Shown: in pieces, positions 5,991-21,261 of the stretch
Numbering within the stretch: the first letter of the stretch is position 1
How the letters are laid out: every line of letters begins with the position of its first letter
Origin: Actinocorallia herbida
Lineage (GTDB): Bacteria; Actinomycetota; Actinomycetes; Streptosporangiales; Streptosporangiaceae
Length of the DNA: 64,000 bases
NCBI RefSeq assembly: GCF_003751225.1
Contig: NZ_RJKE01000001.1
Span: 5,890,001 to 5,954,000 of the forward strand
Direction: 5' to 3'
Translations under genes and position numbers: made by a program
The notes under the pieces: generated by a model
The model's database searches: none
What the model was told of the DNA's origin: nothing
What the model saw: only the letters and a program-made list of their open reading frames with translations

Positions 5991-6368
5991 CCGCAGGAGC
6001 AACTGCCCGGGTCTCTTCAGCGAATGGCTCACCCTCATGACCGCACTCCAGCGGGCCCGTCGGCCGGCGCCGGGGCTGGAACGCGCGGGCTTGCGTCGCC
6101 GTGCATGACTTCACGAGAGTCACCGGTCCGTCCAGCCGGGAACCTCCACCACGTTCCCAGCTTCTCTTCGAAGCCGGCGCCGCCGACACGGAACCCACCA
6201 TGACAGGGGCCGTGATCCAATCGCGCAACGGAACCCTTAGCTCAACAGACCCTGGCGCGGGACTGTTCCGATGGGCGTAAGTTGCCTTTTCCTATCTCTT
6301 GCCGCTTTGGAACCGATCAGTATTCGGACGGATGGCCTGCGGCCTTCCACGACGCGGAAAGGGGTAGG
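5991..6368. other. Intergenic region without a supported gene
   Basis: About 380 bases between the GTPase gene and a degenerate gene on the other strand. Only short frames with no recognisable family are present, and no clear terminator hairpin was found. Confidence 0.5.
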
Positions 6369-6956
6369 TCAGGCGGGGGCTCCGTCGAAAAAGTCACGGA
6401 GGCCTCCCGGGGTGCAGCGGCCGATGACGAGTTGTTCCAGGACGCCCAGGCCTGTGCGGTCTCCCCAGGTCGCGCGAACGACCTGCTGGACATGGATCAA
6501 GTGGAGGGAGAGGTTGTCGAGGTCTGCGACGGGGAACTCCTCGGCGCCGACCGAGAGGTCGCCGTGCCAGCGGCCGTGCATCCAGTGCGGGTGGAGGTAG
6601 CCGGCGCCCCTCGTGCGGAACGTAAGAGGGGTACCAGTTCCACCGTGGGGTGTTCCTGTCCGGGGAGCATCAGGGTCGCGCCGTTCGAGCGGCGCAGGCC
6701 GGGGGCCCAGCGGATCGCGTACTCGGCGTGCGGCAGCTGCCGGATGCCGGCCTCCGGGCCGAGACGGGGTCGTCCGCTCCGATGACGGGGAGCAGGGCCG
6801 TAGTCCGGGACCAGGGACGGCCTTCGGTGTCCTCCATCGACATGAAGTACAGACGCTGATCGGCAAAGTTCAGGGGCGCCCAGAGAAAGAACACCTGGCC
6901 GGAGTGCACCAGGGGTGCGGCGGGTGCGGGGTCTCCGACGGCGACCTGACGGTCAC
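6369..6956 (-). pseudogene. Frameshifted DUF7064-type protein gene
   Basis: Three minus-strand frames in order give one continuous family pattern: WAPLNFADQRLYFMSMEDTEGRPW and ALLPVIGADDP (about 6780-6910), then IRQLPHAEYAIRWAPGLRRS (about 6680-6750), then YLHPHWMHGRWHGDL, VQQVVRATWGDRTGLGVLEQ and RDFFDGAPA to the stop. This resembles the C-terminal DUF7064 domain of proteins often found with lipid or steroid catabolism genes. At least two frameshifts separate the pieces and the N-terminal half is missing, so it is not functional. The gene order and shared wording across frames argue against chance. Confidence 0.75.
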
Positions 6957-6967
6957 CACACCGCAGC

Positions 6968-6999
6968 TGATGTTCCCCCGGTTTAACGGGGGAACATCA
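6968..6999. terminator. Strong perfect hairpin, possible terminator
   Basis: Thirteen-base perfect arms (TGATGTTCCCCCG and CGGGGGAACATCA) flank a six-base loop GTTTAA. There is no long T-run, so it may be a factor-independent-like terminator or a binding palindrome. It lies between the degenerate DUF7064 gene and the secreted-protein gene. Confidence 0.5.
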
Positions 7000-7152
7000 A
7001 GTTCATGTACGCCACGTAGCCCCTGGCCCGCGGTTCGACCGCCACGTCCTGAACGAACCCAGCCGCCGTTCAGGTCGCCGGCGTGTGAATCGGACGTGGG
7101 GGCGCCCGGGCCCGCCGTTGTGCGGTGGGTCCCGGGGCGCTGGTGTGGTGGG

Positions 7153-8007
7153 TCAGGTGCAGGTCACGATGAGGCCGGTCAGGACGGTGCAGGTCCAGGT
7201 GGCGGAGTTGTTGGTCGGGTCGGTGTCGCCGGGGGTGGCGAAGGTCATGGTGACGGTGTAGTTCCCCAGGGCGAGGAGGTTGACGGTCCGGGGGAAGGTG
7301 GTCGACAGCAGGCCGCCGGCCGGGACGTCGCTTTGCGGGCAGGTCTCGTTGTCGGCGCCGCCGGTGCATCCGGCGCCGATGGCGGACGTGAGGAGCCCGG
7401 AGGGGCTGACGGTCTTGGTCAGGGTGACGTTGGTGGCGGTGCCGGTGCCGATGTTGGACGCCCAGGCGTTGAAGTTCAGGGTCTGGGTGAGGGCCTTGTA
7501 GCCATAGCTGAGCTTGATGGCGCTCAGGTCGGGGGCGGCGGGGGTGACGGTGATGACGGGACCGTTGACCGCTCCGGTGGTGGAGCCGCCGGAGGTGTAG
7601 AACTGGGCACGGCTGGTGAACGTCCCCGCCGCCGTGGCGGAGTCGACGGTGACGGTCAGGTCATAGCTGAACGCCTGCCCGTTGGTCAGGTTCGGCAGGG
7701 CGAGCCGATCGACCGATCCGACCTCGGTGGCGGAGGTGAGGCCGCCGCTGAAGGAGGAGATGGAGGTGAAGGACGGCAGCGTCCCGGTGGTGCCGCCGGT
7801 CCCGCCGGTGGCGGAGACGTCGATGCGGGCGCCGGAGTAGTTGCCGTTGGAGGTCCCGCTGATGGTGATCGTGGTCGTGGTCGCCGCGGGGACGGTGGTC
7901 GGGCTCGCGGTCACGGTCAGGGTCGGATGGGCCGAGGCCGGGGCGGCGATCGCCACGATCAGGCCTCCGGCCAGCGCGAGCGCCGACAGCAGGGAACGCA
8001 GACGCAT
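7153..8007 (-). CDS. Secreted protein with CARDB/DUF11-like beta domains
   Basis: The 284-residue product starts with a signal peptide (MRLRSLLSALALAGGLIVAI, cleavage near ASA-HP). The mature part is Thr/Ser/Gly-rich with Ig-like strand patterns: LTVTASPTTVPAATTTTITI near the N-terminus and NIGTGTATNVTLTKTVSPSG, then TDPTNNSATWTC near the C-terminus, the hallmark of DUF11/CARDB folds. A few cysteines near the end (GCTGG, ETCP, WTC, VTCT) could form disulfides. It is probably an exported surface or matrix protein. A second secreted protein is encoded 170 bases upstream on the same strand. No enzyme motif is seen. Confidence 0.75.
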   Translation of the reverse strand: MRLRSLLSALALAGGLIVAIAAPASAHPTLTVTASPTTVPAATTTTITISGTSNGNYSGARIDVSATGGTGGTTGTLPSFTSISSFSGGLTSATEVGSVDRLALPNLTNGQAFSYDLTVTVDSATAAGTFTSRAQFYTSGGSTTGAVNGPVITVTPAAPDLSAIKLSYGYKALTQTLNFNAWASNIGTGTATNVTLTKTVSPSGLLTSAIGAGCTGGADNETCPQSDVPAGGLLSTTFPRTVNLLALGNYTVTMTFATPGDTDPTNNSATWTCTVLTGLIVTCT

Positions 8008-8178
8008 CAGGACTCCTTTTCTCGCCGGTTCGCGGACGGTCCGCGGGCCGGGATGCCGTGGGCGGTGGTGGACCGGCCCGCGCGACCGCGAGGCCGGGTC
8101 CGCGTATCACCGGCCGAAGCGTGCTCCGCGACGCGGCACCCGCCCGGTTCTTCGTTCGCGTTGCTCATCCGGGCACGT

Positions 8179-8745
8179 TCACAGGCCGGTGATCTGGAGG
8201 GCGGTGGTGCCGTCCTGGACGGTGAGGCCGCCGGGCAGCAGGCATTGCAGCGGGTTGACCAAGGGGTAGATCCAGGTGATGACGGCGGTGGCGCCGGTGA
8301 ACTCGCCCGCCGTCACGGTGCCGACGGCGGTGTTCTGCAGGATCCCCGCGGTGTTGGTGAGGGTGCCGATGAGGCCGGTGAGGGTGGAGGTCCGCCCGTT
8401 GTTCCAGGCGACGACGAGCGTGCCGCCCGCGGGGTTGAGCTGGACGGCGTTACAGGACGCGCCGGGGACGGGGTAGGAGTACGGGCCGCCGGTGATGACG
8501 CCGGTGATGGTGGGGTCGGTGGAGATGCAGGAGGTGATGGTGTCGGTCTCGGTCGCGGTGACGTTCTGCGGGGTGAGCGTCAGGCCGGGACTGTAGACGA
8601 CGTGGCTGGTACCGGTGCACGTGGTGGACGACGCCGCGTGGGCGGCCGACGCCGGCACCAACACCGCCGCGGCGACCGGCAGCAGCACCGCGGCCAGCGG
8701 CCCGCACCGATGCCTTCGGCGGGACGGAAGCGCAATGGGGGACAT
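8179..8745 (-). CDS. Small secreted protein of unknown function
   Basis: The ATG at 8745 is chosen because GGAGGAGA precedes it at good spacing; the 43 residues upstream look non-coding. The 188-residue product has a signal peptide (MSPIALPSRRRHRCGPLAAV followed by a hydrophobic stretch ending ASAAHA). The mature chain has spaced cysteines (TTCTGTSH, TSCIST, ASCNAV, LQCLLPGG) suggesting disulfides and a strand-rich fold resembling other actinomycete exported proteins of unknown role. It is followed by the CARDB-like secreted protein and may be coexpressed with it. Confidence 0.7.
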   Translation of the reverse strand: MSPIALPSRRRHRCGPLAAVLLPVAAAVLVPASAAHAASSTTCTGTSHVVYSPGLTLTPQNVTATETDTITSCISTDPTITGVITGGPYSYPVPGASCNAVQLNPAGGTLVVAWNNGRTSTLTGLIGTLTNTAGILQNTAVGTVTAGEFTGATAVITWIYPLVNPLQCLLPGGLTVQDGTTALQITGL

Positions 8746-12337: not shown

Positions 12338-12413
12338 AATTCCTGTCGGTTGACAGATAGATATGAGCCGCTTGTTTCCGCCCGCGCGTCCCCTCCGTTC
12401 CCCACCCGGAACG
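12338..12413 (+). repeat. Dispersed ~75-base block with CTGTC/GACAG palindrome, copy 1
   Basis: AATTCCTGTCGGTTGACAGA begins a block that matches 40341-40416 with scattered differences. The core CTGTC-N4-GACAG is an inverted repeat. Here it lies about 180 bases upstream of a TetR-type gene. It could be an operator, a promoter with a TTGACA -35 element, or a small dispersed repeat. Confidence 0.6.
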
Positions 12414-12527
12414 CTCACCTCACCGGGCATGTGGATCGAGCACGCGCCCGCGCTGTGCCAGGATCATGGGACGGGCCGGGACGAGCAGGTGGGCCGGGCC
12501 GAGCGGGCGGGCCGGGACGAGGTGGCT

Positions 12528-13190
12528 ATGGAGAAGCGAGGGGTGGGCAGGCCGCGCGCGGTCGAGCGCGCCGTGACGGGGCTGTCGCCGCGCGAGGAGG
12601 TCCTGTCGGCGGCCGCCGAGCTGTTCACGGTGCGCGGCTACACCGCGACCACCACCCGCGAGGTCGCCGAGCGCGCCGGGATCCGGCAGGCGTCGATGTA
12701 CCACTACTTCAAGGGCAAGGAGGCGATCCTCGCGGAGCTGCTGGAGAGCACCGTCCGCCCGTCGCTCGAGGCCGCTCGCGCCCTCGCCGCCGCCGACGCC
12801 CCCGCCGGGGCCCGCCTGTGGGCGCTGTGCCGCAGCGACGTCGCCCTGCTGTGCTCCGGCCCGCACAACCTCGGCGCCCTCTACCTGCTGCCCGAGGCCG
12901 ACCGGATCGAGGGCTTCGCCGAGCTGCGGGCCGCGCTGAAGCACGCCTACGCCGATCTGCTGGCCCCGCTCACCACCGGCCTGCCCGACCGGGACGTCCG
13001 CGCCGACCTGGTGTTCGCGCTGGTCGAGGCCGTCATCCTGATCCGCCGCGACCGCCCGGACGCCGATGTCCTCGCCGAGGCCACCGCCGACGCCGCCCTC
13101 CGCGTCGCCGGCGTCCCCGAAGCCGACCTCCCCGCCCTCCGCACCACTGCCCTGGCCCTCCTGTCCGATTTCTCCTCACCCCCGATCTAG
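12528..13190 (+). CDS. TetR/AcrR family transcriptional regulator
   Basis: ATG 12528 is chosen over an upstream in-frame ATG at 12363 because the 55 extra residues are low-complexity and the family starts with a short basic lead (MEKRGVGRPRA). The DNA-binding domain follows: REEVLSAAAELFTVRGYTAT, REVAERAGIRQASMYHYFKG. The ligand domain is helical and ends DFSSPPI, 220 residues in all. Upstream DNA carries imperfect GGGCCGGGACGAG-type repeats at about 12470-12525 and the CTGTC/GACAG palindrome. Its target is unknown; the downstream XRE/ethylene-forming-enzyme pair is the nearest same-strand unit. Confidence 0.88.
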   Translation: MEKRGVGRPRAVERAVTGLSPREEVLSAAAELFTVRGYTATTTREVAERAGIRQASMYHYFKGKEAILAELLESTVRPSLEAARALAAADAPAGARLWALCRSDVALLCSGPHNLGALYLLPEADRIEGFAELRAALKHAYADLLAPLTTGLPDRDVRADLVFALVEAVILIRRDRPDADVLAEATADAALRVAGVPEADLPALRTTALALLSDFSSPPI

Positions 13191-13384
13191 ACCCGTTTCG
13201 TCGTCGCTTCACCACCGCCCCTCCGAGACGACGCGTGCTTCCGCCGGAGATCCCCCAGCGCGCTCCCGTCCCACCCGGCCCGCACCGCCGAAGCAGCCCT
13301 TCACCGCCCCCGCACGACCGCTCTATTCCGCGGCGGGCGGCGGGGTTACGCTCGCCGTACAGGCCGGAGCGGAAGGAGCCGCCG

Positions 13385-14311
13385 ATGGAGGACATCAGGT
13401 TCGCCTCCGTGCTGCGGCGCCTGCTAGACGAGCGGTACCGCGGCAACCGGCGCGAGTTCGCCCGGCGGCTGCACATCTCGGAGTCGGCCCTGTCGCAGTA
13501 CGTGCGCGGCAAGGCCACGCCGGGGCTGGCGATGCTCGTCGCGATCGCCCGCGAACTCGACGTCAGCCTCGACCTGCTCGTCCTCGGCGTCGACCGGGAA
13601 CCGGCCGCGCCCGACTACGGCGAGTTCGTCGCGCACCTGGAGTACGCGTTCAACCGCAGCCGCGCCGAGTCGGCCAGCACCCGCGACTACGTGGCCCGCG
13701 TGGGGGCCGCGCTCGCCGAGCAGATCGAGGGCGTCGTCAAGGCGACGCTCGCCGAGGCCGCCCCGCGCGGTCTCACCACCGCCGAGATCATCCGGCTGGA
13801 GGGACACAGCCGGACGACCCGGATCGCCACCGCCGACCTCGGCTCCGACATCGTGCTCCTCGGCTTCGACCCGGCCGCCCCCGACGGCGCCCAGTCCGCC
13901 GCCGGGCCGTTCACCGGGGTCGTCACCGGCAACATCAAGAAGGGCAGGACCTACACCTACGCCATTCCCGAGGGCGCGGAATGGCGGTTCAAGGCGACGA
14001 GGCTGCGGCAGGTCGTCGCGCTGGTGGGCGGGCTGAGCCTGGCCGCCGTCGACCGGCACCTGCGGTTCCACGAGTCGGCGCGCTCGCTCGTGCCCGGCTT
14101 CGTCATCTACGACACCGACCCCGCTTCGGCGGCCGACGACCCGCTGTTCGAGCGGATCGCCGACTTCACCGATCCCTCGACGGGACGCGTCGTCCTGTCG
14201 ACCAGCTACACCGACCAGATCTATGTCCCCGTCGAGCCGAAGTACCACCAGCGCGTGGTCGCGGACTACGAGGAGACCGTCAGGTCCGGCCCCCGGCTCA
14301 CCTTCGCCTGA
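13385..14311 (+). CDS. XRE family regulator with C-terminal sensory domain, beside the ethylene-forming enzyme gene
   Basis: The 308-residue protein starts after GGAAGGAGCC. Residues about 5-65 form a Cro/C1 helix-turn-helix (NRREFARRLHISESALSQYV, KATPGLAMLVAIARELDVSL). Residues about 90-308 form a domain I cannot name, with strand-rich stretches such as VVTGNIKKGRTYTYAIPEG and a C-terminal YVPVEPKYHQRVVADYEE. It is encoded 24 bases upstream of the ethylene-forming-enzyme-like gene in the same direction, so the two are very likely cotranscribed and the regulator probably controls or senses that pathway (inference). Confidence 0.8.
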   Translation: MEDIRFASVLRRLLDERYRGNRREFARRLHISESALSQYVRGKATPGLAMLVAIARELDVSLDLLVLGVDREPAAPDYGEFVAHLEYAFNRSRAESASTRDYVARVGAALAEQIEGVVKATLAEAAPRGLTTAEIIRLEGHSRTTRIATADLGSDIVLLGFDPAAPDGAQSAAGPFTGVVTGNIKKGRTYTYAIPEGAEWRFKATRLRQVVALVGGLSLAAVDRHLRFHESARSLVPGFVIYDTDPASAADDPLFERIADFTDPSTGRVVLSTSYTDQIYVPVEPKYHQRVVADYEETVRSGPRLTFA

Positions 14312-14335
14312 GCCCCATCCCACCGGAGAGATCCC

Positions 14336-15358
14336 ATGTTCGACCCGTGCGTGTTCACCCTGCCCGCGACCGTCACCGGCAGCGCCGCCGACCGTGCCCT
14401 CGGCCGGGAACTCCTCGCCGCCTGGCGCAGCGACGGCCTGTTCCTGCTCACCCTCGACCCGTCCGCCGCGCCCGCCGTCGACCACGCGCTGACCGCGGCC
14501 CGCAGCTTCTTCGCGCTCCCGGCGTCGTCGAAGCGGTGCTACACCGACGACCGCAGCTACAGCGGATACGCCGGCTCCGGCGAGGAGATGACGGCGGGCC
14601 AGGCCGACCACTGCGAGGTCTTCACCGTCTGCAAGGACGTCCCGGACGACGACCCGCGCGTCCTGGCCGGGCTCCCCTGCCACGGCCCCGTCCCCTGGCC
14701 GGGCCTGCACCACCGCCGGACGATCACCGCCCTGATGAGGGGCCTCGGGGACGTCGGCGACCGCGTGCTCGCCCTGGTCGCGCTGGGCCTGAGCCGGGAC
14801 CCGTCGGTCTTCCTCGACCTGACCCGCGACGGCTGGCACCACCTGCGCTCGCTCCGGTACCCCGCGACCTCCGAGGAGACCGGTCACGGCCTGGGCGTCC
14901 ACACCGACTACGGGATGCTCGTGCTGACCGTCCAGGACGACGCGGGCGGCCTCTACGTCCGGCCGCCGGTCCCGGGCGAGCCGCGCGGCCGCAACTGGCT
15001 GCCGGAGGAGTCCACGGCCGGGGTGTACGAGGACGTCGAGCCCTGGCACCACGTCACTCCCGTGCCCGGCACGATCACGGCCTTCCCCGGCGACATCCTG
15101 CAGTTCCTGACGGGCGGCGACCTGCTGTCGACCCCGCACCAGGCGAAGCTGTCGGCCCGCGAGCGCCACTCGATCGCCTACTTCCACGAGCCCTCCTTCG
15201 ACGCCGAGTTCACGCCGCTCGACGGCGGCGACCCGCTCCACTACGGCACCCACTTCACCCAGATGTTCCTGCGCTGCTACCCCGACCGGCCGACCACCCT
15301 CCGGATCCTGCGCGAGGACCGGACGGCCCTGCTCCGCCCGGTCCCCGCCCTCCCCTGA
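14336..15358 (+). CDS. efe: Ethylene-forming enzyme homologue (2-oxoglutarate/L-arginine-dependent Fe(II) oxygenase)
   Basis: The 340-residue product aligns without gaps to the Pseudomonas ethylene-forming enzyme (EFE) through about residue 283, so positions can be compared directly. Iron ligands H189, D191 and H268 are present (VHTDYG, STPHQ), as are R277 for 2-oxoglutarate (ARERHS), E84, T86, R171, Y192, F283 and the Arg corresponding to R316 (MFLRCYPD, here 313). Family-specific text such as EVFTVCKD, CHGPVPWP, LTRDGWHH, GDILQFLTGG and YFHEP is retained. Differences near the active site include M85 for V85 and T198 for A198. EFE converts 2-oxoglutarate to ethylene while hydroxylating L-arginine. 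A GGAGAG ribosome-binding site precedes the ATG. Confidence 0.9.
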   Translation: MFDPCVFTLPATVTGSAADRALGRELLAAWRSDGLFLLTLDPSAAPAVDHALTAARSFFALPASSKRCYTDDRSYSGYAGSGEEMTAGQADHCEVFTVCKDVPDDDPRVLAGLPCHGPVPWPGLHHRRTITALMRGLGDVGDRVLALVALGLSRDPSVFLDLTRDGWHHLRSLRYPATSEETGHGLGVHTDYGMLVLTVQDDAGGLYVRPPVPGEPRGRNWLPEESTAGVYEDVEPWHHVTPVPGTITAFPGDILQFLTGGDLLSTPHQAKLSARERHSIAYFHEPSFDAEFTPLDGGDPLHYGTHFTQMFLRCYPDRPTTLRILREDRTALLRPVPALP

Positions 15359-15715: not shown

Positions 15716-15955
15716 GGGGGGTCTTCTTTCGCGCTGCGGTTCCCGCTGGGACCCGGGCCGGCCGGTTGTCGGCGGCTGACACAAGGTTGCTCCCGAACGA
15801 GGTTCGGGGCATCGGACGCCTGACCGAACCCGGCCGCGCAATCGGGGAACCCCGCGATGGCCGTTCCGGCGACCCCGCTACGTCAAATGACGTAGCTCTG
15901 ATGATCACGCGGTGTTCCCTCTTGAGAACAGCGGCCCCCAGATTTACCGTGAATC

Positions 15956-16165
15956 ATGGAAAATCGCCGGGACGACCGCCTTTCCTCGCGTCTCGTGGCC
16001 CTCGCGGTGCTCGGCTTCCTTCTCTTCTCTCCCCCGCTCCTCATGATCTTCGATCACGGGCGCCTCTTCCTCGGCGTCCCGCTCGTCTGGGCCTACCTGT
16101 TGACCTGCTGGGCCGTCCTCATCGTGTCGATCGCGCTCCTCACGTCGCGCCGAAGTCAGGGGTAG
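15956..16165 (+). CDS. Small membrane protein, probable partner subunit of the symporter-kinase
   Basis: The 69-residue product has two membrane segments (LVALAVLGFLLFSPPLLMIF, VWAYLLTCWAVLIVSIALL) with the F-x-P-P-L and W-A-Y-L-L spacing of the small subunits encoded in front of SSS-type sodium/solute symporters. It ends three bases before the ATG of the symporter-kinase, so translation is coupled. Likely role is assembly or function of the transporter domain. Confidence 0.8.
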   Translation: MENRRDDRLSSRLVALAVLGFLLFSPPLLMIFDHGRLFLGVPLVWAYLLTCWAVLIVSIALLTSRRSQG

Positions 16166-16167
16166 GC

Positions 16168-18759
16168 ATGCTGGGAGACACCTTCGTCACCGTCGTCGCC
16201 GGGGTCTACCTGCTGTCGCTCTTCGTCGTCGCCTACTACGTCGACCGGCGCGCGGCCGCCGGCCGGAGCATCATCAAGAGCGGCACCGTCTACGCGCTCT
16301 CGCTGGCCGTCTACGCCACCTCGTGGACCTACTACGGCGGCGTCGGGCAGGCCGCCACCTCGGGCCTCGGCTTCCTGCCGATCTACATCGGCCCTACCCT
16401 CATGTTCGCGCTCGGGTGGGCCGTCATCCGGAAGATCATCCGGATCAGCAAGCGGCACCGCATCACCTCGCTCGCCGACTTCATCTCCGCCCGCTACGGC
16501 AGCAGCACCACGCTGGGCGCGCTGGTGACGGTGCTGACCGTGGTGGGGCTGCTGCCGTTCATCGCGCTCCAGCTGAAGACCGTCTCCAACAGCTGCGAGA
16601 TCATCCGGCTGCATCCGCGGGTGCCCACCAAGTACGAGCTGGCGCACGTCTCGTTCGTCCAGGACACCGGCCTCTACCTGACGTTCCTGCTGGCGGCGTT
16701 CGCGATCTGGTTCGGCACCCGCCGCCTGGACGCCTCCGAGCGGCACGAGGGCATGGTCGCAACGATCGCGATGGAGTCCGTGCTCAAGCTGATCATCTTC
16801 CTGATCGCGGGCGCGTACGTCGTGTTCGGGGTGTTCGGCGGCTTCGGCGACCTGTTCGAGCTCGCCGAGGCCACGCCCCGCACCGCCGCGATGCTCACCG
16901 CGGGCGGCAACGGCGGCTCCTACGGCACCTGGGTCTGGCTGATCCTGCTGTCGATGCTCGCGGTGATCCTGCTGCCCCGGCAGTGGCAGGTGACGTTCGT
17001 GGAGAACACCGACGAGCGGCACCTGCTGCGGGCGATGTGGCTGTTCCCGCTCTACCTGCTGGTCATCAACCTGTTCGTGCTGCCGATCGCGCTCGGCGGG
17101 CTGCTGCGCTTCGGCTCGCACAGCGCGGTCGACCCCGACACGTTCCTGCTGGCCATCCCGCTGTCGGCGGGCTCGGACCTGGTGACGCTGCTGGTGTTCG
17201 TCGGCGGCCTCAGCACCGCCACCGGCATGATCATCGTGGAGACCGTCGCGCTCAGCACGATGATCTCCAACTACCTGGTCCTGCCCCTGCTGCTGCGCAC
17301 CCGCTCCCGCGAGCGCGCCGACCTGACGCCGACGATCCTCGGCGTCCGGCGGGCCGCGATCATTGTGATCATGGTGGCCAGCTACGTCTACTTCCGGACG
17401 TTCGGCAGCGGCCTCCCCCTGGTGAGTTTCGGCCTGCTGTCGTTCGCCGCGGTCGCCCAGTTCGCGCCCGCGGTGCTCGGCGGGCTGTTCTGGCGGTACG
17501 GCACCCGGCACGGCGCGCTCGCCGGGCTCTCCGCCGGGTTCGCGGTCTGGGTGTACACGCTGCTGCTGCCGACCTTCGACAAGGCGGGCTGGCTGCCGGG
17601 CGCGCTCACCGACCAGGGCCTGTTCGAGCAGGACTGGCTGCGCCCGCAGGCGCTGTTCGGGCTGTCGGGCATGGACGAGATCAGCCACGCGATGTTCTGG
17701 AGCATGTTCGTCAACGTCGGGCTGTACGTCGCGGTGTCGCTGGCCGAGCGGCCGAGTGCCGCCGTCCTGGCCGACGCCGCGGTGTTCGTCGACGCCCTGG
17801 ACGACACCACCGGCACGCGCCGCTGGTACGGCCGGGTCACGGTCGGCGACCTGCGGATTCTGGCGGAGCGGTTCCTCGGCCCGGCCGGGACGGCACGGGC
17901 GTTCACCGAGCACGGCGTCCCGCCGAACCGGGACTCCGAGGCCGATCCCGAGCTGGTCCAGCACGTCGAGACGCTGATGGCCGGGGCGGTCGGCCCGGCG
18001 TGCGCCCGGTTCGTCATCGCGTCGGTGACCCGCGAGGATCCGATGCCCGCCGAGACCATCAAGGAGATCCTGGACGAGGCGTCCCAGGTGGCGGCGCTGG
18101 AAGAGCGGCACCGGCTCGCCCGCGAGCTGCACGACTCGGTCTCGCAGGCGCTGTTCTCGATGAACCTGCACACGCGGGCGCTGGAGCTGGCCGTCCAGCG
18201 GTCGGACTGGGAGCGCAAGGACGCCGTCGCGCCGACCCTGTCGGAGCTGCGGGCGCTCACCCAGAGCGCGCTGTCGGAGATGCGGGCGCTGATCTTCCAG
18301 CTGCGTCCCGGCACGCTCCACGAGGAGGGCCTGTCGGCGGCGGTGAAGCGGCACGTCGCCACGGTCGCGGCCCGCGAGGGCATCGCGATCGAGGTGGACG
18401 CCCCGCCCGACCGGCTTCCGCTGGCGGAACGGCCCGAGCAGGACCTGTTCCGCATCGTGCAGGAGGCCGTGCACAACTCGATCAAGCACGCCTCGCCGAG
18501 CCGGATCACGGTCCGGCTGCGAGAGGAGGACACCGCGCTGACGGTCGAGGTCGGCGACGACGGGGTCGGATTCGATCCGGGGGCGCCGCATCCGGGCCAT
18601 CTGGGCCTGGACGGCATGCGGGAGCGCGCCGAGCGGCTGGGCGGCCGGCTCGACATCGCCAGCTCCGCCGGAGGGTCCACCGTCCGGGCCGTTATCCCGG
18701 GGTGCTTGCACCCGCCCGAACCGGGCCGAGACGATGTGGGAACCGCAGCCCTGGAGTGA
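16168..18759 (+). CDS. Sodium/solute symporter-histidine kinase fusion
   Basis: This 863-residue protein starts at ATG 16168. Residues 1 to about 520 form an SLC5/SSS-type symporter with about 13 membrane segments (YATSWTYYGGVGQAATSGLG near the N-terminus, ADFISARYG, LSTATGMIIVETVALSTMIS). A linker leads to a NarL-class HisKA_3 dimerisation helix with phosphoacceptor H655 (RLARELHDSVSQALF) and a HATPase_c domain (EAVHNSIKHASP as N-box, GDDGVGFDP, HLGLDGMRERAERLGG). It resembles CbrA/PutP-like sensor kinases that use a transporter as a sensor, but with a NarL-type kinase core. The LuxR-type regulator next door is the presumed partner. Confidence 0.92.
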   Translation: MLGDTFVTVVAGVYLLSLFVVAYYVDRRAAAGRSIIKSGTVYALSLAVYATSWTYYGGVGQAATSGLGFLPIYIGPTLMFALGWAVIRKIIRISKRHRITSLADFISARYGSSTTLGALVTVLTVVGLLPFIALQLKTVSNSCEIIRLHPRVPTKYELAHVSFVQDTGLYLTFLLAAFAIWFGTRRLDASERHEGMVATIAMESVLKLIIFLIAGAYVVFGVFGGFGDLFELAEATPRTAAMLTAGGNGGSYGTWVWLILLSMLAVILLPRQWQVTFVENTDERHLLRAMWLFPLYLLVINLFVLPIALGGLLRFGSHSAVDPDTFLLAIPLSAGSDLVTLLVFVGGLSTATGMIIVETVALSTMISNYLVLPLLLRTRSRERADLTPTILGVRRAAIIVIMVASYVYFRTFGSGLPLVSFGLLSFAAVAQFAPAVLGGLFWRYGTRHGALAGLSAGFAVWVYTLLLPTFDKAGWLPGALTDQGLFEQDWLRPQALFGLSGMDEISHAMFWSMFVNVGLYVAVSLAERPSAAVLADAAVFVDALDDTTGTRRWYGRVTVGDLRILAERFLGPAGTARAFTEHGVPPNRDSEADPELVQHVETLMAGAVGPACARFVIASVTREDPMPAETIKEILDEASQVAALEERHRLARELHDSVSQALFSMNLHTRALELAVQRSDWERKDAVAPTLSELRALTQSALSEMRALIFQLRPGTLHEEGLSAAVKRHVATVAAREGIAIEVDAPPDRLPLAERPEQDLFRIVQEAVHNSIKHASPSRITVRLREEDTALTVEVGDDGVGFDPGAPHPGHLGLDGMRERAERLGGRLDIASSAGGSTVRAVIPGCLHPPEPGRDDVGTAALE

Positions 18760-18769
18760 TGAACAAGCC

Positions 18770-19450
18770 ATGCACAAAGATGTGATGAGCGGTCCCGACG
18801 AGCCGATCCGCGTCGTCGTCGTCGACGACCACAACGTCGTCCGCAAGGGACTCCAGCTCTTCTTCGGGATGCTCGACGACATCGAGGTCGTGGGCGAGGC
18901 CGCCGACGGCAGGCACGCCCTGGACCTCCTGGGCTTCCTGTCCGCCGAGGAGGCGCTGCCCGACGTCGTCCTGATGGATCTGGAGATGCCGCGGATGGAC
19001 GGCATCGCCGCCACCGCGGAGATCAAGAAGCTGTACCCGGCGGTGGAGGTGGTCGCGCTGACCAGCTTCAGCGAGGCCGAGCGCGTCCATCTGGCGCTGG
19101 AGGTCGGCGCGGCCGGCTACCTGCTCAAGGACGCCGACGCCGACGAGGTCGGGGTCGCGGTCCGGGCGGCGCACCGGGGCGAGATCCACCTGGACGCCGC
19201 CGTGGTCGGCAAGCTGACCAGGTCGCTGCGCCAGCCCGCCGAAACCGGAGCGGTCCTCACCCCGCGTGAACGCGAGATCCTGGAGCTGGTCGCCCGCGGC
19301 CACTCCAACCGCGACATCGCGAAGGCTCTGATGATCAGCGAACGGACCACCCGGACGCATGTCAGCAACATGCTGGGCAAGCTCGGCCTGGTCTCACGCA
19401 CCCAGGCCGCGCTGTGGGCGATCCGTGAGGGGATCGCCCCCGGACCGTAA
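18770..19450 (+). CDS. NarL/LuxR-type response regulator
   Basis: The 226-residue protein (from ATG 18770; an ATG at 18785 is possible) has a receiver domain with acidic pocket VVVVDDHNVVRKGLQLF, phosphoacceptor D70 in VVLMDLEMPRMDGI and K in GYLLKDADADE, followed by a GerE/LuxR helix-turn-helix (LTPREREILELVARGHSNRD, RTTRTHVSNMLGKLGLVSRT). It begins 10 bases after the symporter-kinase gene. The NarL-class kinase core and adjacency make it the cognate regulator. Target genes are unknown. Confidence 0.93.
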   Translation: MHKDVMSGPDEPIRVVVVDDHNVVRKGLQLFFGMLDDIEVVGEAADGRHALDLLGFLSAEEALPDVVLMDLEMPRMDGIAATAEIKKLYPAVEVVALTSFSEAERVHLALEVGAAGYLLKDADADEVGVAVRAAHRGEIHLDAAVVGKLTRSLRQPAETGAVLTPREREILELVARGHSNRDIAKALMISERTTRTHVSNMLGKLGLVSRTQAALWAIREGIAPGP

Positions 19451-20017: not shown

Positions 20018-20110
20018 TTGACCTCCTCCCCTCCCTGAAGGGAGGGGATTCTCCCCTGCTACACCGGTGAGGGTGTGAGCTTGGAGTGGGTTTCTGCTTC
20101 GTCACGCTGC
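20018..20110 (-). ncRNA. Probable omega-RNA (TnpB guide scaffold) 3' region
   Basis: In IS605-type elements TnpB uses an RNA that overlaps the tnpB 3' end and the right end of the element. Here the minus strand after tnpB shows a GC-rich stem-loop (CCCCTCCCTTCAGGGAGGGG) followed by AGGAGGTCAA and then flanking DNA. If cleavage is after TCAA at 20018, the guide would be the next 20 bases on the minus strand, 20017 down to 19998. The 5' limit of the RNA is not known. Confidence 0.55.
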
Positions 20111-21261
20111 GCCGGGATCACTCCCGGTCTTACCTGCGCTCCACAGGCCGAAACCGCCAGCCCGGCGGCCTTCGCGACGTTCACCGCCGCGTTGACGTCC
20201 CGGTCCAGGACCGTCCCGCAGTGCGGGCACTCCCATTCACGGACGTTCAACGGCTTCGGTCCGTCCTTGACCCCGCACATCGAGCAGACTTGCGAGGTGG
20301 CCTCGAACCGGCCGATCTTCACCACGGTCCGTCCGTACAGGGCGGCCTTGTACTCCAGCATCGTCACGAATCGCGACCATGCGGCGTCGTGCACGGATTT
20401 CGCCAGCCGGGTGCGGGCCAGGCCCTTCACCGCCAGGTCTTCCACGGCGATCGCTTGGTTGTCGCGAATCAGCAGGGTGGAGAGCCGGTGGTGGAAATCC
20501 CGGCGGGCGTCGGTGACTTTCGCGTGAGCGCGGGCGACCTTCACCCGTGCTCTCGCCCGGTTCTTCGAACCCTTCTGTTTGCGGGAGAGATCCCGCTGGG
20601 CCTTCTTCAGTTTCTTCTCGGCCCGCCGCAGGAAACGCGGGCTTTCGATCTTCGTACCGTCCGACAGAATCACGAAGTGGGTGAGTCCCAGATCCAGACC
20701 GACCACCGCATCGGTCTCCGGCAAGGGTTCCGGCGAGGCGTCGATCACGAACGACGCGAAGTACCGGCCCGCCGAATCCTTGATCACCGTGACCGACGAC
20801 GGAACCGACGGCAGACGACGCGACCAGCGAACAGGCACGTCTCCGACCTTCGGCAGCCGCAACCTCCCGCCTGTCGTGATCTGCCAGCGGGCGTTGGCGG
20901 TGAACCGGACCGTCTGCCGCGTGTCCTTCCGCGACCGGTACCCAGGCGCACCCATGCGGGGGCGCTTGCCCGACAGACCATCGAAGAAGTTCCGGTAGGC
21001 GGTATCGAGGTCCCGCAACGCCTGCTGAAGAACCACCGATGAGACTTCGGCCAGCCACGAACGCTCCGGCGTGGCCTTCGCCTGGGTGATGAGCGTCCTG
21101 GACAGGTCGCCGGTCTTGGGGAACGGCAGTCCGTCCCGGCGTGCGGTCTCCCGTGCACGCAACGCGTCGTTGTAGACGACGCGCGCGCACCCGAACGCCC
21201 GAGCCAACGCCTCGCGTTGACCGACCGTCGGGTAGAGCCGGAAGTTGTACCGCAACCGCAC
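20059..21261 (-). CDS. tnpB: TnpB RNA-guided nuclease (IS605 family)
   Basis: The 400-residue protein starts MRLRYNFRLYPTVGQREALA, the usual N-terminal domain. The RuvC catalytic residues are all present: D190 (VVGLDLGLTHF), E274 (AVEDLAVKGL) and D354 (DRDVNAAVN). A zinc finger is formed by C326, C329, C345 and C348 (CSMCG, CPHCG). The gene therefore appears intact and could make an active RNA-guided endonuclease that protects the element by cutting donor sites. It diverges from a tnpA remnant 22 bases away. Confidence 0.95.
   Translation of the reverse strand: MRLRYNFRLYPTVGQREALARAFGCARVVYNDALRARETARRDGLPFPKTGDLSRTLITQAKATPERSWLAEVSSVVLQQALRDLDTAYRNFFDGLSGKRPRMGAPGYRSRKDTRQTVRFTANARWQITTGGRLRLPKVGDVPVRWSRRLPSVPSSVTVIKDSAGRYFASFVIDASPEPLPETDAVVGLDLGLTHFVILSDGTKIESPRFLRRAEKKLKKAQRDLSRKQKGSKNRARARVKVARAHAKVTDARRDFHHRLSTLLIRDNQAIAVEDLAVKGLARTRLAKSVHDAAWSRFVTMLEYKAALYGRTVVKIGRFEATSQVCSMCGVKDGPKPLNVREWECPHCGTVLDRDVNAAVNVAKAAGLAVSACGAQVRPGVIPAQRDEAETHSKLTPSPV

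What the first reader, a model, noticed from the sequence alone, without database searches (positions are those of the whole stretch)
13385..15358. Ethylene-forming enzyme homologue paired with a dedicated XRE-type regulator
The enzyme matches Pseudomonas EFE position by position: iron ligands H189, D191, H268; 2-oxoglutarate Arg277; arginine-site E84, T86, R171, Y192 and R316-equivalent all kept. Two pocket changes (V85M, A198T) could alter the ethylene to hydroxylation ratio. Bacterial EFE is best known from plant-associated Pseudomonas; an actinomycete copy with its own regulator 24 bases upstream is unusual. The regulator's C-terminal domain is not one I can name and could sense a substrate or product such as 2-oxoglutarate, arginine or guanidine.
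Basis: partly seen in the sequence, partly recalled or inferred. Interest (0 to 1): 0.8.

Follow-up and report, generated by a model that had tools for sequence, protein, structure and literature searches.

The report
Ethylene-forming enzyme relative, probably ethylene-poor
This actinomycete carries a diverged relative of the bacterial ethylene-making enzyme beside a helix-turn-helix regulator gene; it keeps the iron and arginine sites but has lost much of the greasy pocket thought to be needed for making ethylene, so it probably does another reaction.

Summary
Two genes lie in tandem, 24 bases apart: an XRE-type regulator (13385-14311) and a 340-aa 2-oxoglutarate oxygenase (14336-15358), 54% identical to Pseudomonas EFE and inside the EFE clade.

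Metal, 2OG-carboxylate and arginine residues are intact (0 of 17 changed), but the nonpolar 2OG pocket is not: F175Y, A198T and A279S occur together, with further changes. All 12 other EFE-clade sequences compared keep F175 and A198. The reconstructed ancestor Anc124 has the same triple and made trace ethylene, no detectable P5C and much succinate; PsEFE A198V makes mainly 3-hydroxypropionate.

So this is more likely an EFE-derived arginine-site oxygenase with ethylene chemistry largely lost than a working EFE. The regulator's C-terminal domain matches no family; one distant relative was found in 345 genomes of the order, with no EFE seen near it, so 'dedicated' rests on adjacency alone.

In passing: one actinomycete has an EFE gene directly followed by a guanidine-hydrolase homologue.

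The parts
13385..14311 (+). XRE-family regulator gene, 308 aa; HTH_3 at residues 22-65, C-terminal ~234 aa domain of unknown family
   Evidence: ORF; Pfam HTH_3 41.1 bits over cut-off 23; C-terminal part no match in Pfam, NCBIfam or PDB
14336..15358 (+). EFE-clade 2OG/Fe(II) oxygenase gene, 340 aa
   Evidence: PDB phmmer 407 bits to PsEFE; 54% identity; DIOX_N and 2OG-FeII_Oxy over cut-off; tree; fold search tops with EFE (low-confidence model)
14858..14860 (+). codon of Y175 (F in all 12 other EFE-clade rows)
14927..14929 (+). codon of T198 (A in all 12 other EFE-clade rows)
15170..15172 (+). codon of S279 (A in 10 of 12, T in 2 of 12 other EFE-clade rows)
13191..13384 (+). 194-base gap between the TetR-type gene and the regulator; presumed promoter and operator of the pair (inferred)
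   Evidence: gene positions; four inverted repeats with arms 21-49 bases apart, none convincing as an operator; no sigma-70-type promoter found
14312..14335 (+). 24-base gap with GGAGAG at 14325-14330, consistent with one transcript (inferred)

Best explanation
The enzyme descends from the EFE lineage and still binds Fe(II), 2-oxoglutarate and an arginine-like co-substrate in the EFE manner, but its 2OG pocket has become more polar and reshaped (Y175, T198, S279, with S172, L186, V199, A270, H278). The off-line oxygen chemistry that fragments 2OG to ethylene is therefore expected to be weak or absent. The enzyme would act mainly as an ordinary 2OG oxygenase: 2OG to succinate plus CO2, coupled to C-H hydroxylation of arginine (giving guanidine and P5C) or of a close guanidino analogue, with some uncoupled decarboxylation. 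The upstream XRE protein, made from the same transcript, most likely represses its own promoter in the 13191-13384 gap until a small molecule binds its C-terminal domain. Shown: genes, homology, residues, clade, tandem layout. Inferred: substrate, product ratio, co-transcription, repression and ligand.
For: 0 of 17 arginine, metal and related positions changed against 4 of 10 family-invariant 2OG-pocket positions (Fisher p 0.012 between the two sets, chosen after seeing the alignment). None of the 12 other EFE-clade rows changes an otherwise invariant pocket position. The F175Y/A198T/A279S triple equals that of Anc124 (0.3 nmol ethylene, P5C not detected, 1230 nmol succinate from 2000 nmol 2OG; PMC12329707). 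A198V and other variants keep some arginine hydroxylation with ethylene essentially gone (PMC10467617, passages). Long tip branch, 0.92-1.23 against median end branches of 0.21-0.34, fits a change of function. Tandem layout with 24-base gap.
Against: Anc124 made no detectable P5C either, so the triple may also damage arginine hydroxylation, and an ancestor is not a natural enzyme. PsEFE A198V sends most 2OG to 3-hydroxypropionate rather than P5C (PMC12060275, passages). Changes are spread wider than the pocket (17 of 122 other invariant sites), and pocket versus rest gives only p 0.053. No close guanidine-hydrolase homologue was found in the genome (best 35% identity), giving no support for guanidine use. 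Nothing here tests the regulator's action; no clear operator or promoter was seen.
Confidence: 0.45

Rival explanations
1. It is a working EFE that makes ethylene, perhaps at a lower rate or altered ratio.
For: All metal, R277, R171 and arginine-site residues tested and E215 are kept. It is 54% identical to PsEFE, about as close as the P. digitatum enzyme, 55% to PsEFE, which makes ethylene (PMC4202696). V172T and F278Y alone did not significantly lower ethylene in PsEFE (same paper). Other residues at V85 (I, L) occur in homologues shown to make ethylene (PMC9101411, parts 1-2).
Against: F175Y, A198T and A279S together equal the Anc124 pocket; A198V and A198L nearly abolish or greatly reduce ethylene; A199, where A199G lowered ethylene, is V here; unlike all 12 other clade rows at 175 and 198.
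Confidence: 0.2
2. The substrate is no longer arginine: a 2OG oxygenase of a different amino acid or metabolite, with the arginine site kept by descent only.
For: Large divergence on one branch; V85M at the arginine lid; no arginine- or guanidine-linked gene among the 10 window neighbours scanned, and no guanidine-hydrolase match in the window. P. chrysogenum's EFE homologue makes no ethylene (PMC4202696).
Against: Arginine, metal and related residues are fully conserved (0 of 17 changed), which drift to another substrate would not predict.
Confidence: 0.25
3. It is a natural 3-hydroxypropionate-forming enzyme: T198 mimics the isosteric V198 of the PsEFE variant that turns most 2OG into 3-HP.
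For: A198V makes mostly 3-HP, and A198L 0.435 3-HP per 2OG consumed (PMC12060275).
Against: Anc124, with T at this position plus Y175 and S279, made only 0.5 nmol 3-HP.
Confidence: 0.1

Closest known systems
Pseudomonas savastanoi PK2 EFE (PDB 5V2Y, 6VP4)
   Same: 54% identity; iron, 2OG-carboxylate and arginine-site residues; E215 loop present
   Different: F175Y, A198T, A279S, V172S, I186L, A199V, V270A, F278H, V85M in the window enzyme, which also has an XRE gene upstream
Anc124, reconstructed EFE relative (PMC12329707)
   Same: the Tyr/Thr/Ser triple in the 2OG pocket
Actinomycete EFE homologues (S. scabiei efe; Frankia cluster-2 island lineage; L012-L019 here)
   Same: EFE-type enzymes in actinomycetes
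   Different: L012-L019 are 57-68% identical to PsEFE and keep F175 and A198, and no regulator homologue was found near them; the S. scabiei and Frankia sequences were not compared here
Penicillium chrysogenum EFE homologue (makes no ethylene, PMC4202696)
   Same: polar residue at 172; like it, differs from the ethylene makers at 199 and 278
   Different: different residues at those sites; the window keeps L22, V212, E235 and I254

Membership tests
Ethylene-forming enzyme (2OG-dependent) | 2-His-1-Asp facial triad H189, D191, H268 | tested here: met
Ethylene-forming enzyme (2OG-dependent) | R277 and R171 for the 2OG carboxylates | tested here: met
Ethylene-forming enzyme (2OG-dependent) | arginine site E84, T86, D91, Y192, M313, F314, R316, C317 | tested here: met
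   V85 is M, but V85 also varies in other rows (Q, R, E, L)
Ethylene-forming enzyme (2OG-dependent) | nonpolar 2OG pocket (L173, F175, I186, V196, A198, L206, F250, V270, A279, A281, F283) | tested here: not met
   F175Y, I186L, A198T, V270A, A279S; pocket residues taken from PMC11025135 (passages) and PMC12329707
Ethylene-forming enzyme (2OG-dependent) | long loop with E215 | tested here: met
Ethylene-forming enzyme (2OG-dependent) | groups with EFEs away from other 2OG oxygenases | tested here: met
   100/100 branch against three outgroup rows, but exact place in the clade unresolved
Ethylene-forming enzyme (2OG-dependent) | arginine-dependent ethylene formation | not testable with these tools
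   needs assay
XRE-type transcriptional regulator | Cro/C1-type HTH domain | tested here: met
   HTH_3 41.1 bits, cut-off 23
XRE-type transcriptional regulator | DNA binding and ligand sensing | not testable with these tools
   C-terminal domain matches nothing in Pfam, NCBIfam or PDB at E up to 10; structure model too poor to search (pLDDT 38.8)

The most novel reading that the evidence does not exclude
A natural EFE descendant in which evolution has switched off ethylene formation while keeping arginine-directed oxygenation, put under its own ligand-sensing regulator of a new XRE subfamily. This would be a living separation of two reactions that the ancestral-reconstruction study concluded to be inherent to one another.
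Probability: 0.3. Interest if true: 0.65.

Novelty: new variant of a known kind. Interest (0 to 1): 0.4.

Why it matters
Why EFE, among the 2OG oxygenases, makes ethylene is open; a review names the hydrophobic surroundings of 2OG as perhaps the most important factor (PMC10467617, passage). A natural enzyme that keeps the arginine site but has a more polar pocket is a direct test of that idea, with no need to rely on reconstructed ancestors. It also warns against annotating ethylene production from overall EFE similarity.

Tried and rejected
Rejected: membership of another 2OG-oxygenase clade. Rejected: actinomycete EFE as a new occurrence. Not supported: a conserved regulator-EFE pair. Not found: a guanidine riboswitch in the window or near nine EFE-type loci (no Rfam match at gathering score).

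Led nowhere: single-sequence AlphaFold of the regulator (pLDDT 38.8), so no fold search was made with it. Family searches of the regulator hit only its HTH, below curated cut-offs in NCBIfam, or HTH-centred models in PADLOC (best E 2.7e-6) and PHROGs. Viral-contig scans (6 matches, HTH region only; none), the plasmid search with the whole regulator (none) and the phage search with its C-terminal part (none) gave no relative. Promoter and inverted-repeat scans gave nothing usable. The enzyme model is weak (pLDDT 56.5; rmsd about 8 A to EFE), so the fold search adds little beyond sequence. The genome-contig scan returned only 3 loci, and large-sample genome searches scored only 5-14 candidates per genome, so sister sequences of the window enzyme or regulator may exist unseen. 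Fungal homologues were not compared. A tie of the window enzyme to the S. clavuligerus homologue was neither supported nor rejected (AU p 0.347). Weak matches of the C-terminal domain in G022, G039, G121 and G525 (E 0.002-0.009) were not followed; none reached E 0.001 with the two-row profile.

Full report
What is there. Two ORFs on the + strand, 13385-14311 and 14336-15358, are separated by 24 bases. Third-position GC is 0.961 and 0.982, so both look like real genes. The genome is a single 9.80 Mb contig. Upstream is a TetR-type gene, 12363-13190 (Pfam TetR_N), leaving a 194-base gap. Downstream is a small CBU_0592-type membrane protein on the other strand. The pair is a two-gene unit by layout; co-transcription is inferred.

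The enzyme. phmmer against the PDB puts PsEFE first (407 bits), then P. digitatum EFE (355 bits), the reconstructed Anc357 (115 bits) and PaIPNS (98 bits). Identity to PsEFE is 54%. In a tree of 17 rows the EFE-type proteins, window included, are split from three other 2OG oxygenases by a 100/100 branch, with a long-branch warning for those three. Its place inside is unresolved. In one search a 95/98 branch sets nine rows, PsEFE among them, apart from the window; two reruns with rows left out gave other arrangements, with no starred set around it. Its tip branch is 0.92, 1.23 and 1.14 changes per column against medians of 0.34, 0.22 and 0.21. Within the EFE group only the S. clavuligerus homologue is longer.

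The pocket. PsEFE numbering equals window numbering to residue 295; beyond that the window is 3 lower. The comparison set is 12 other EFE-clade rows: PsEFE; Pseudomonas lurida, P. californiensis and Scytonema loci; and 8 actinomycete genomes. F175 and A198 are kept in 12 of 12 and A279 in 10 of 12 (T in the other two); the window has Y, T and S. Of 132 positions invariant in those 12 rows, the window changes 21. These include 4 of the 10 invariant pocket positions (175, 186, 198, 270; 279 is not invariant) and 0 of 17 arginine, metal and related positions. Each of the 12 others, tested the same way against the other 11, changes 0 to 5 of 132-137 invariant positions and 0 of 10 in the pocket. 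Pocket versus arginine/metal set gives Fisher p 0.012; pocket versus all other invariant sites gives p 0.053, so the clustering is suggestive, not overwhelming. V172S, A199V and F278H are neighbours in sequence of pocket or 2OG-binding residues. The broken copy in G049 and the S. clavuligerus homologue were left out of the 12. The latter shares A198T, has P where H189 stands, and changes 7 of the 17 arginine/metal positions.

What the literature says of these residues. In PMC12329707 (parts 1 and 3-6 of 8 read) Anc124, 56% identical to PK2 EFE, carries Tyr, Thr and Ser at the positions of F175, A198 and A279. It made 0.3 nmol ethylene and no detectable P5C, but 1230 nmol succinate from 2000 nmol 2OG; the authors think the more hydrophilic, smaller 2OG site the likely cause. 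PMC10467617 (passages) lists A198V among variants with some arginine hydroxylation and essentially no ethylene. PMC12060275 (passages) says A198V turns most 2OG to 3-HP. PMC4202696 (parts 1-2 of 4) reports that A199G, I304N and V212Y/E213S lower ethylene while V172T and F278Y alone do not significantly. The window has V199, L304, V212/P213, S172 and H278. L304 and P213 also occur in other rows.

How it most likely works. Intact iron, R277, R171 and arginine site argue for 2OG binding and an arginine-like co-substrate. The more polar pocket argues against ethylene. I therefore favour an oxygenase that couples 2OG decarboxylation to hydroxylation of arginine or an analogue, with ethylene weak or absent (0.45). 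Anc124's lack of P5C is the main result against the arginine part.

Distribution. EFE-type proteins other than the window's were found in 8 of 394 genomes of the class, as a match in 1 of 150 genomes of the family that falls into three stretches and frames, and in 1 of 396 of the phylum, already seen in the class search; these samples overlap. Two congeners gave no match at E 1e-20. Actinomycete EFE genes are in print for S. scabiei (PMC8369830, passages) and for Frankia cluster-2, where expression in field nodules is reported (PMC9392346, passages).

The regulator. It has an HTH_3 domain and a C-terminal 234 aa with no match in Pfam, NCBIfam or the PDB even at E 10. No paralogue was found in its genome at E 0.001. 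The full-length search found none in the 394-genome class sample other than its own at E 1e-15, with at most 5 candidates scored per genome. The C-terminal part alone gave 5 matches besides its own in 200 family genomes at E 0.01, only G013 (E 5.8e-9) below 0.001. A profile of window and G013 found no third member among 345 genomes of the order at E 0.001, at most 8 candidates scored each. The G013 protein is 28% identical over 311 aa. It is followed by a tRNA_bind-domain protein, a response regulator and a chromate-transporter-like protein, and no EFE-type gene was seen in that 14 kb. tblastn of both regulators against 13 EFE-type loci (172 kb, including the degraded copy in L038) found nothing better than E 0.04. 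So the pairing is seen once, and 'dedicated' remains inference.

Guanidine link. No Rfam match at gathering score occurs in the window or in nine EFE-type loci. The best ureohydrolases in the genome are only 33-35% identical to the guanidine-hydrolase homologue.

Passing find. In G308 the EFE gene (7514-8536 of L033, minus strand) is followed 57 bases on, same strand, by a 396-aa arginase-family protein. It scores 530 and 498 bits to PDB 9FEK and 7ESR/7OI1 against 163 bits to guanidinobutyrase. That these entries are guanidine hydrolases is recalled; the PDB names say 'agmatinase 2', and PMC8390497 (start of abstract in a listing, and passages) reports Sll1077 as guanidine-degrading. It is present in 1 of the 13 loci searched; the other EFE-bearing genome of that genus, G165, lacks it in the 12 kb held. 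The listings and the passages read mention no natural EFE-guanidinase pair; most papers in the listings were not opened.

Noticed in passing
L033 (G308:C52), 6266-7456 and 7514-8536, minus strand: EFE homologue (67.6% to PsEFE) followed 57 bases downstream by a guanidine-hydrolase (Sll1077-type) homologue: a natural EFE-guanidinase tandem, in 1 of the 13 EFE-type loci searched.
   Followed up: partly
L022, 9986-11110 (Streptomyces clavuligerus plasmid pF1D35B): EFE-like protein with P in place of the metal ligand H189 and 7 of 17 arginine/metal positions changed, near Rrf2, globin and universal-stress genes; possibly a catalytically altered or dead EFE relative.
   Followed up: partly
L038 / L008 (G049:C151): EFE homologue whose matches fall in three separate stretches and frames; decayed gene or assembly error. 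Described only.
   Followed up: no
G000:C1:3855521-3856237 and 3860695-3861654: In the window's own genome another 2OG oxygenase (PF03171 match) lies about 4.5 kb from an arginase-family-like gene.
   Followed up: no
window 15766-18759 and 18734-19450: Large ORF with a C-terminal histidine kinase overlapping a LuxR-type response regulator; the N-terminal part reads like a sodium:solute symporter (recalled; no Pfam match to that part at 1e-4).
   Followed up: no
window 20059-21261: OrfB/IS605-type transposon protein with a Cas12f1-like TNB domain.
   Followed up: no
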